A stretch of DNA of 34,820 bases from Desulfotignum sp. (lineage in GTDB: Bacteria > Desulfobacterota > Desulfobacteria > Desulfobacterales > Desulfobacteraceae): positions 1 to 34,820 of the forward strand of contig JAABSB010000016.1 in the NCBI GenBank assembly GCA_011390615.1, in the 5' to 3' direction. Every line of letters begins with the position of its first letter. The stretch's first letter is position 1. This document shows positions 33,284-34,820 of the stretch, one piece after another. The notes under the pieces were generated by a model. The model was not told where the DNA came from. It saw only the letters and a program-made list of their open reading frames with translations, and made no database searches. The translations under genes and the position numbers were made by a program.

Positions 33284-33359
33284 GGGCCGTTAGCTCAATT
33301 GGTAGAGCAACTGACTCTTAATCAGTAGGTCCAAGGTTCGATCCCTTGACGGCCCACCA
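33284..33359 (+). tRNA. tRNA-Lys (anticodon CUU)
   Basis: The 76-nt cloverleaf is complete. The acceptor stem is GGGCCGT with ACGGCCC, and the D-arm is GCTC with GAGC. The anticodon stem ACTGA/TCAGT holds loop CTCTTAA, giving anticodon CTT, which reads AAG. The T-arm contains GGTTCGATCCC. The CCA end is encoded. A promoter precedes it and a terminator follows. Confidence 0.97.
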
Positions 33360-33403: not shown

Positions 33404-33746
33404 GTTACACTTGATATTTTAATGTGGTTTTTGAAATTCTATTCATAGCCTGGGAAAAGACTCGCATTTTTCAAATACCCTGCTCCATTACTTTGTATGC
33501 GCCGGTTTCTTCCATTGACCACCTTCCTTCAATTGGAGATTTTCCCGTTGAAATAATCGGCCCACTTGTTGGGTTTAAGGCAGTTATTGGGGATGGACTG
33601 CCCTTCATGGCCATGCCTTATCACCGTCTGGAATGCCTGTCAATATTGAATTTTTATTGTCTCCCTTGTTGGCGTTCCTGCCGTCTAACTGCTACAGAAT
33701 GCATGTAACCAAGACCCAGGCAAAGAACCTGAGAGCAAGGTATTTG
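33404..33746. other. region without a confident gene downstream of tRNA-Lys
   Basis: A 94-codon plus-strand frame covers 33424-33708 and a 47-codon minus-strand frame lies inside it. The plus frame has a protein-like stretch (LPSIGDFPVEIIGPLVGFKAVIGDGLPF) but no ribosome binding site. Its C-terminal part reads like non-coding sequence rich in Cys and Arg. I recognise no family. It may be a remnant of a decayed gene or mobile element. Confidence 0.35.
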
Positions 33747-34145
33747 ATGCATCCACACAAAGATTATATCACAGATCTTGAAAATACTTTAGCAATTTAC
33801 GATGCGGTTCCTGTCTTGAATCCAACCGTCATGAAAATACAGCAGGAAGCCACAAGAAAAGATCTCCATTTTTCTTTACTGGCAAGCCTTATCCGTAAGG
33901 ACCCGGCCATGACCAGCCAGGTTTTAAAGGTTGCCAATTCCCCTTATTGCCGGGGCATCGAAGAAGCCCGAACCCTCAAGGATGCACTGACACGGCTGGG
34001 TCAAAAGGAAATTTGTCAATATTATAATGGTCCTGATATACCAGCAGCACTTCCGGTCAAAATATCCGGTGATCCATCCATTACAAAAACAGTTGTGGCA
34101 TCACTGTGTCAATATTTTGTGGCTGAGAAGTATAATTTTTTGTAG
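33747..34145 (+). pseudogene. truncated HDOD-domain protein
   Basis: HDOD domains occur in regulatory proteins linked to signalling, and the full domain spans about 200 residues. This 132-residue frame starts at an ATG with AAGG upstream. It matches only the first half: PVLNPTVMKIQQEATRKD, LASLIRKDPAMTSQVLKVANSPY, then ARTLKDALTRLGQKEI. After about residue 90 the resemblance stops and a low-similarity tail leads to the stop codon. Most likely a deletion removed the middle of the gene and joined it to other sequence. A short genuine protein cannot be excluded. Confidence 0.6.
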
Positions 34146-34257
34146 CCAGGCATTAAACTATATGGGCTAAGGTCAACATCAGAAGCCATTCTTACACATT
34201 AAGCTATATAATATATTTTGTTGAAAATCAGCCCTTTCTGGAGTCAAGGATTATCCC

Positions 34258-34332
34258 ATGGCTGAAAATTTCCAGGGTCATTTATTTTGGGATACCATGA
34301 ATATTGTTGAGACCGGAGAAAATTTATGGTAA
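34258..34332 (+). other. 24-codon ORF, possible remnant of a small gene
   Basis: The frame reads MAENFQGHLFWDTM and ends at LW. It has AAGGA 7 nt upstream, so initiation is plausible. The LFWD stretch resembles the start of small proteins that often sit in toxin-antitoxin-like pairs, but this is a faint match. The rest of 34146-34387 is AT-rich and shows nothing I can name. Confidence 0.25.
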
Positions 34333-34387: not shown

Positions 34388-34573
34388 ATGGCAAAGGAAT
34401 GCAGTGTTCCTGAGAATCCTTTAAGTTTCATTCAACAATGCGTTCACTTAAAAAAAATTCACTGGACTTATCATGTGAACATGCGAATGAGGGGAAGATT
34501 TATCTCACGAGAAGCGATTGATAACTCTTTCAAAAATTGTCAACTACCCAGGCCTGAAGGCCGGAGCTTGTAA
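34388..34573 (+). pseudogene. DUF4258-family gene interrupted by an inserted element
   Basis: DUF4258 proteins are small and are often encoded next to antitoxin-like regulators; their function is poorly defined. The ATG at 34388 has AAGGA upstream. Residues 21-46 (KKIHWTYHVNMRMRGRFISREAIDNS) carry the core family pattern of an aromatic-Thr/Trp strand, His, Arg-Met and I-S-R-E-A-I. Family members normally continue with an E/Y-rich segment and a second strand pair. Here the frame instead runs into a GC-rich hairpin (NCQLPRPEGRSL) and stops. The break, at about 34541, coincides with the start of the mobile-element-like sequence. Confidence 0.6.
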
Positions 34574-34820
34574 AAGGCTCCATGGTTGACCAGGGAAATG
34601 TTCAAAGTTTAATGGCAAAGACAAAAAAGGAGAACATTAAAAGTTGCATAGAGAGCTAAAGACCAACGGCGGGATGCTTCCTCAGTCCCGCCCTCTTGAA
34701 GCCCGGGTTGCAGACAACCTACAGGGGTGTGGACGAAACGGGTCCGGGCATACAGCCGCTGTGCAACAATCCCGAGGGGAGAGTTCAACCGATGCCAGGG
34801 TTGAACCGTCACCCGCCGTG
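34541..34820 (+). mobile_element. probable end of an IS200/IS605-superfamily-type element, continuing off the right edge
   Basis: The sequence changes abruptly within the DUF4258 gene. It begins with CTACCCAGGCCTGAAGGCC and GGAGCTTGTAA, a hairpin (GGCC-TGAA-GGCC) of the kind found at ends of IS200/IS605-like and TnpB/IscB elements. It becomes GC-rich and strongly structured after about 34660, unlike the AT-rich flank. No transposase or nuclease frame is present before the window ends. Assignment rests on recalled resemblance of the hairpin, the interrupted gene and the structured RNA; the other end is not visible. Confidence 0.45.
34640..34820 (+). ncRNA. candidate structured RNA, possibly HEARO/omega-RNA type (partial or near-complete)
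   Basis: Several strong pairings occur in 180 nt without a convincing reading frame. ACGGCGGG (34666-34673) can pair with CCCGCCGT (34812-34819), closing the whole region. GGCGGGA/TCCCGCC (34668-34692) is a competing local hairpin. GCCCGG pairs with CCGGGC around GGTTG-CAGA-CAACC, and GTTCAACC pairs with GGTTGAAC (34783-34806). The density of stems and the position inside a putative IS end fit the RNA that precedes iscB/isrB genes. A group II intron 5' domain or another structured element is an alternative. The identity is inferred, not shown. Confidence 0.4.

What the first reader, a model, noticed from the sequence alone, without database searches (positions are those of the whole stretch)
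34541..34820. Possible omega-RNA (HEARO-type) mobile element starting at the right edge
A GC-rich, densely self-complementary stretch follows an IS200/IS605-like hairpin and has no good reading frame. An 8-bp closing helix (34666-34673 with 34812-34819) spans the region and competes with a local 7-bp hairpin. IscB/IsrB nucleases are known to be preceded by such an RNA, with the start codon just after it. If so, the nuclease gene begins directly to the right of this window. This is the best candidate here for an RNA-guided system.
Basis: partly seen in the sequence, partly recalled or inferred. Interest (0 to 1): 0.7.

Follow-up and report, generated by a model that had tools for sequence, protein, structure and literature searches.

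The report
IscB transposon cut by contig end
The right edge of this window is the front part of a known kind of mobile element that carries an RNA-guided DNA-cutting enzyme (IscB) and its guide RNA; its relatives often sit just before gene start codons, which may spare those genes.

Summary
Window 34539-34787 (+) matches Rfam HEARO at 96.6 bits (gathering score 83, E 8.3e-19). The window is a whole contig that ends inside a multi-copy repeat: its genome holds eight copies, and five contigs stop at the same element base. The one copy whose contig runs on enters an IscB gene. Complete elements in same-genus genomes show the anatomy: HEARO/omega-RNA, IscB (NCBIfam guided_IscB 395 bits, cut-off 175), terminal hairpin, about 1.7 kb, no transposase inside. 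Joined flanks match empty sites in related genomes, so insertion is clean and directly before ATGA.

Beyond the finding: in this clade the ATGA is mostly a gene start (11 of 15 sites by my count; rough null 119 of 927). The 15 right ends seen carry GGAG shortly before it, and the IscB frame runs back through the omega-RNA. My paper searches listed nothing on the start-codon link. So: a new member of a known kind, with an insertion habit worth testing. The window copy's own nuclease and right end lie off the contig and were not seen.

The parts
34523..34538 (+). host sequence left of the element; expected 5' guide part of the omega-RNA (length of about 16 nt assumed from memory of the family)
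   Evidence: Position only: it lies directly before the element start GTCAAC. Guide use is inferred from the IscB family, not tested.
34539..34820 (+). left 282 bases of the IscB transposon (window copy), cut by the contig end
   Evidence: Seven further copies in the same genome, six at 98-99% and one at 90%; flanks left of 34539 differ between copies.
34539..34787 (+). HEARO / omega-RNA scaffold
   Evidence: RF02033, 96.6 bits, full model, gathering score 83.
34644..34820 (+). start of the IscB reading frame, inside the omega-RNA and open to the contig end; the true start codon is not known
   Evidence: 59 codons without a stop; in-frame with IscB in complete clade elements. In C83 one base is missing further on, so there the frame shifts.

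Best explanation
The right edge of the window is the left end of an IscB (OMEGA) transposon of the IS200/IS605 superfamily that carries no transposase of its own. Shown: a HEARO RNA at the left end; several near-identical copies with different flanks; an IscB gene directly downstream in the copy that can be read on and in same-genus elements; clean insertion directly before ATGA in relatives. Inferred from established family biology: a Y1 transposase acting in trans moves the element; the host sequence to its left is transcribed as the 5' guide; and the IscB-RNA complex cuts uninserted copies of the site (guide match plus ATGA as adjacent motif), so that repair restores the element. Inferred here: since the ATGA is mostly a start codon and the right tip carries a Shine-Dalgarno-like motif, an insertion replaces the target gene's ribosome-binding site instead of destroying the gene.
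For: HEARO over its gathering score. Eight copies in the genome. RRXRR match in C83 and open frame. Complete elements L053-L056. Protein: guided_IscB 395 bits against 175, RRXRR and HNH over Pfam cut-offs, solved IscB structures by sequence. Empty sites: L053 in five genomes examined, L055 in one, own copies C183, C144 and C89 by left flank; C11, C142, C55 by right flank. Five Y1 transposase matches in the genome, one partial. ATGA as gene start: 11 of 15 clade sites.
Against: The IscB gene of the window copy itself was not seen; the contig ends. No empty site was found for the window's left flank. No transposase lies inside the complete elements, and none was linked to them. Two of eight relatives of the C144 flank, and the one readable C173 relative, do not show ATGA at the junction. 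Expression, guide use and cutting were not tested.
Confidence: 0.93

Rival explanations
1. The window copy is a HEARO-only or decayed remnant: an internally deleted element without a working nuclease, moved, if at all, by proteins from other copies.
For: One own-genome copy (C140) is such a remnant, joined directly to an ATGA start. HEARO copies with no IscB match are frequent in relatives. The rest of the window copy is not in the assembly.
Against: Five contigs end at the same base and the window piece is 98-100% identical to copies there, one of which (C83) runs into IscB; the end of a collapsed repeat is the simpler reading.
Confidence: 0.2
2. The start-codon habit is only survivorship: insertions before any ATGA occur, and those inside genes are lost. 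The GGAG at the right tip is part of the end structure that the transposase recognises and has no role in translation.
For: The clade's GGAG overlaps the foot of the terminal hairpin in some folds. The proteobacterial and viral-contig group also ends at gene starts but has no linear Shine-Dalgarno at its tip. Native Shine-Dalgarno motifs in left flanks are not clearly enriched (9 of 32 against 17.7%, p 0.10).
Against: Sites are at gene starts more often than among start or intergenic ATGA (11 of 15 against 119 of 927). The spacer between GGAG and ATGA varies while GGAG stays.
Confidence: 0.45
3. An IsrB (RuvC-only) or TnpB element rather than IscB.
For: IsrB shares the HEARO type of RNA and an NTGA motif (passages of PMC9581776; HEARO of Limnospira with IsrB in passages of PMC12286853).
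Against: The relatives' protein has an HNH domain over Pfam's cut-off (PF01844, 29.9 against 21.4 bits) and matches guided_IscB.
Confidence: 0.03

Closest known systems
HEARO RNA (RF02033) with IscB nucleases, the OMEGA systems (OgeuIscB, TbaIscB and others)
   Same: RNA over the gathering score; IscB over the NCBIfam cut-off; RNA upstream of the gene; few linked transposases, as reported for HEARO nucleases (passages of PMC9755519).
   Different: In this clade the IscB frame is open through the 3' half of the RNA and the right tip carries GGAG before the ATGA target. I found neither in the passages read; I did not read whole papers.
IsrB of Desulfovirgula thermocuniculi
   Same: HEARO-type RNA; adjacent motif NTGA, with ATGA targets cut (passages of PMC9581776), like the ATGA seen here at natural insertions.
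   Different: IsrB lacks the HNH domain that is present here.
IS200/IS605 insertion sequences with TnpA and TnpB
   Same: Clean insertion next to a fixed tetranucleotide and subterminal hairpins.
   Different: No TnpA or TnpB inside the element; five Y1 matches lie elsewhere in the genome.
IStrons (group I intron plus insertion sequence; abstract seen in the listing)
   Same: A mobile element with a way of sparing the host gene.
   Different: There by RNA splicing; here, by inference only, by supplying a ribosome-binding site at the start codon.

Membership tests
HEARO RNA (RF02033) | Score at or above Rfam's gathering threshold over the model | tested here: met
   96.6 bits against 83, model 1-211.
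IscB (OMEGA) element | IscB gene downstream of the RNA in the window copy | tested here: inconclusive
   The contig ends at 34820; the frame is open to the end.
IscB (OMEGA) element | IscB gene downstream of the RNA in sister copies and relatives | tested here: met
   C83; L053-L056 and others; guided_IscB 395 bits against 175.
IscB (OMEGA) element | HNH domain within a RuvC nuclease | tested here: met
   PF01844 29.9 bits and RRXRR 243.7 bits for L053; alignment with TbaIscB. Catalytic residues were judged by eye only.
IscB (OMEGA) element | Guide-dependent DNA cutting next to ATGA | not testable with these tools
   ATGA is seen only as the base context of insertions.
IS200/IS605 superfamily | Insertion at a fixed tetranucleotide without target duplication | tested here: met
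   Empty sites of L053 and L055 aligned across the junction; not shown for the window copy.
IS200/IS605 superfamily | Y1 transposase inside the element | tested here: not met
   The complete elements hold only IscB; Y1 matches lie elsewhere. Transposase-free members are known, so this lowers only the claim of autonomy.
IsrB | RuvC nuclease without HNH | tested here: not met
   HNH present.
Cas9 / CRISPR type II | Score over the Cas9 model cut-off; CRISPR array | tested here: not met
   Cas9d 26.8 bits against 375, Csn1 15.1 against 100. A CRISPR array was not looked for.

The most novel reading that the evidence does not exclude
IscB transposons of the ATGA type are start-codon-targeting elements. 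Their adjacent motif is the start codon itself, and in this clade the right tip is a portable translation-initiation signal that replaces the gene's own ribosome-binding site, so that an insertion is nearly harmless and the gene joins the IscB/guide-RNA transcript. In the same clade IscB is translated from inside its own guide RNA, so that ribosomes and the nuclease compete for that RNA.
Probability: 0.4. Interest if true: 0.65.

Novelty: new member of a known kind. Interest (0 to 1): 0.45.

Why it matters
It adds a multi-copy IscB family in what are probably Desulfotignum genomes, with empty sites that fix both ends and the ATGA context from natural insertions. If the start-codon habit and the ribosome-binding tip hold, they would explain how an RNA-guided transposon spreads through gene-dense genomes without killing genes, and many natural IscB guides would be copies of translation-initiation regions.

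Tried and rejected
The long-range 8-bp helix as part of the RNA: rejected.

The empty site of the window copy itself: not found. In one search (13 genus genomes) the listed matches to its left flank stop at 34331; its listed non-self matches reach only the first 43 of 250 bases. Four right-end contigs of the genome could not be paired with it through relatives.

A Shine-Dalgarno tip as a general property of IscB elements: not supported. Copies with IscB about 27-34% identical to the query mostly end elsewhere (for example L120, L121, L130, L131 at ...GTTGAAA; L139, L140, L063, L064 at ...ATATAAA). The proteobacterial and viral-contig group has no linear Shine-Dalgarno at the tip. In clades B, B2 and in L124 an AAGGAGG lies before a terminal stem whose foot is some 5-10 nt from the ATG; a stem-bridged site is only a suggestion.

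A native Shine-Dalgarno in the left flanks: 9 of 32 strong against 17.7% of random stretches, p 0.10. The control mean printed in that call is spoilt by failed duplexes and is not used.

Coding selection on the frame inside the omega-RNA: weak. Third-position changes are slightly in excess, and length differences among the 10 complete elements compared are multiples of three, but C83 lacks one base there. The motif search failed for L053, L054, L055 and C83; searches cover the first three.

Selection effects to know. One search picked clade A rows by a pattern that contains TTGGAG, so the GGAG count is taken, read by eye (15 ends: L053-L056, L062, L144, L148, L149, L157, L163, L164 and own C11, C173, C142, C55); C55 itself failed the pattern. 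The truncated copy C140 has no such end. In one search the E row L126 is probably the end of a neighbouring element, not of the HEARO copy fetched. In one search I classified 15 sites by hand: L067 was dropped as the same site as L056; L148 and L163 (53 codons), L055 and L069 were counted as not at a start; L056 was counted as a start although the likely native start is an in-frame ATG five codons on; L060 (C140) was counted. The null there comes from crude frame calls on 59 sequences, which include the element loci themselves. Only about 60 HEARO loci and ten more of the matches were fetched. In one search rows ending before base 215 were not printed, and only loci kept were examined. In one search four of eleven printed rows (L328, L308, L317, L318) are on the wrong strand and say nothing.

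Papers: doi 10.1128/JB.00783-15 and 10.1038/nature08586 are not held. I recall, from no call, that HEARO elements were first described as integrated next to ATGA or GTGA. Searches: (listings only). Read as passages only: PMC9755519, PMC12286853, PMC9581776.

Full report
What is there. The Rfam scan of the whole window gives two gathering-level hits: HEARO at 34539-34787 (+), 96.6 bits against 83, over the full model, and a tRNA at 33284-33356. Rescanning 34400-34820 with permissive filters gives the same HEARO hit and one chance-level match. The element starts at 34539 (GTCAAC): a 22-base pattern of its start matches once in the window and in none of 100 shuffles.

Why the window stops there. 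The window is the complete contig C67 of a 3.02-Mb, 222-contig genome with eight HEARO matches, six of them over the cut-off. The 280-base piece has eight matches: the window itself, six at 98-99% and one at 90%. Contigs C67, C144, C89, C183 and C4 stop at the same element base, C162 stops earlier, C140 holds an internal truncated copy, and C83 runs on. This looks like a collapsed repeat (inference). The left flanks differ.

What follows. C83 continues into an IscB N-terminus (RRXRR 138.8 bits, the only RRXRR match in the assembly; frame). Four contigs hold the right end of the element (C11, C173, C142, C55), so the middle is missing from the assembly. Same-genus genomes hold complete elements: L053, L054, L055 and L056. 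Contigs of the same lengths as two of these (29288 and 10548 bases) are named Desulfotignum (L155, L156), hence my genus label. The protein (455 residues as cut) matches guided_IscB at 395 bits (cut-off 175), RRXRR at 243.7 and HNH at 29.9, and solved IscB structures by sequence. The elements are 1684-1704 bases long, with no transposase inside. Five Y1 transposase matches lie elsewhere in the genome, one of them partial with a stop. Among 98 related genomes, the window's own included, 22 have a HEARO match at E <= 0.001 and 20 are over the cut-off.

Ends and target. The 15 clade right ends seen read TTGGAG, a spacer of 5-8 nt (2 or 5 in L148, where two ATGA overlap), then ATGA. The joined flanks of the L053 insertion align across the junction to empty sites in the five genomes examined, 81-98% identical; those of L055 to one, 93%. 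One search lists three more spanning matches for L053 at 72-75% that I did not inspect. By left flank, own copy C183 has ATGA directly at the junction in 3 of 10 non-self rows; in the other 7 an ATGA follows 2 to 26 bases on, where the alignment had ended early. For C144, 5 of 8 have ATGA directly, one three bases on (its alignment ended three bases early), and 2 of 8 are followed by unrelated sequence. C89 has one row, followed by ATGA. C162 has one, which ends 15 bases early with no ATGA there. C67 (the window), C83 and C4 have no non-self row. By right flank, the C11 site (2 of 2 rows), the C142 site (3 of 3) and the C55 site (1 of 1 readable) start at ATGA in relatives without the element; the C173 site reads ATAA in its one readable row. 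The L054 and L056 joined flanks gave no spanning match. For L056 the left flank stands before a different gene in other genomes and in the window's own, which suggests recombination between copies.

Start codons. A frame of at least 50 codons opens from the ATGA in 29 of 36 ends (13 of 14 in clade A, 6 of 11 in B, 3 of 4 in B2, 7 of 7 in E), against 241 of 780 control ATGA sites. For clade A, I count 11 of 15 distinct sites at a gene start, against 119 of 927 among start or intergenic ATGA (binomial p 1.3e-7); one of the 11 is an in-frame ATG just upstream of the likely native start. Three more own copies, known by left flank only, point to frames of 281, 125 and 82 codons. Gene names that I use (tdh-like, trpB-like, thiD-like, vapC-like) come from reading translations, not from a search. 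Among eight ATGA ends of the proteobacterial and viral-contig group, six open 71 or more codons, L165 runs off its record after 49, and L160 has 12; L161 ends at GTGA with 3 codons. These nine ends were placed by eye.

Translation signal. The duplex energy of the last bases with the anti-Shine-Dalgarno averages -7.3 kcal/mol for the 14 clade A rows and -2.4 to -4.1 for B, B2 and E; clade A rows were picked by a pattern with GGAG in it, so only the independent reading counts. The tip could equally be a transposase recognition structure; nothing here separates the two.

IscB frame inside its own RNA. In the 10 complete clade elements compared the IscB frame is open from base 102-119 of the element, through the 3' half of the RNA, and so is the window's. 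In L148 no start codon lies between the RNA and the IscB core; in L062, L144 and L157 the nearest one is an ATG inside the RNA. So translation probably begins inside the RNA (inference). Codon-position evidence is weak, and C83 has a one-base difference there.

Mechanism. Shown: RNA, gene in sister copies and relatives, ends, target context, copy number. Inferred from the family: transposition in trans, guide from the left flank, cutting of empty sites next to ATGA (the related IsrB prefers NTGA and cuts ATGA targets; passages of PMC9581776), and repair that restores the element. Inferred here: replacement of the ribosome-binding site.

Verdict. The finding is correct. It is a member of a known kind; the start-codon habit, the terminal Shine-Dalgarno-like motif and the overlap of IscB with its RNA are the points worth testing.

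Noticed in passing
window 34250-34305 (longer match 34183-34331 in one relative): A short dispersed repeat (ATTATCCCATGG...GGGATACCATGAATATT) with dozens of copies, 12 of 13 genus genomes giving some match to the flank query; it is not part of the IscB element.
   Followed up: partly
window 33633-34145: A frame whose first part is 84-90% identical at the DNA level to stretches in four genus genomes and in own contig C100, but diverges after about 34113; it looks like a truncated gene.
   Followed up: partly
L060 (own contig C140): A truncated HEARO copy of about 200 bases joined directly to an ATGA that opens a 130-codon frame; AGGGG precedes the ATG.
   Followed up: partly
L056 (G005) against own contigs C184 and C173: Left and right flanks of one element copy belong to different sites in other genomes, as if two copies had recombined.
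   Followed up: partly
L096-L099, L132-L145: Many HEARO copies in related genomes carry no IscB match in the search and end within some 300-350 bases, as compact nuclease-free elements.
   Followed up: no
L158, L165, L167, L169 right ends: IscB elements in Cupriavidus and in IMG/VR viral contigs also end at ATG starts, two of them before related genes in viral contigs.
   Followed up: no
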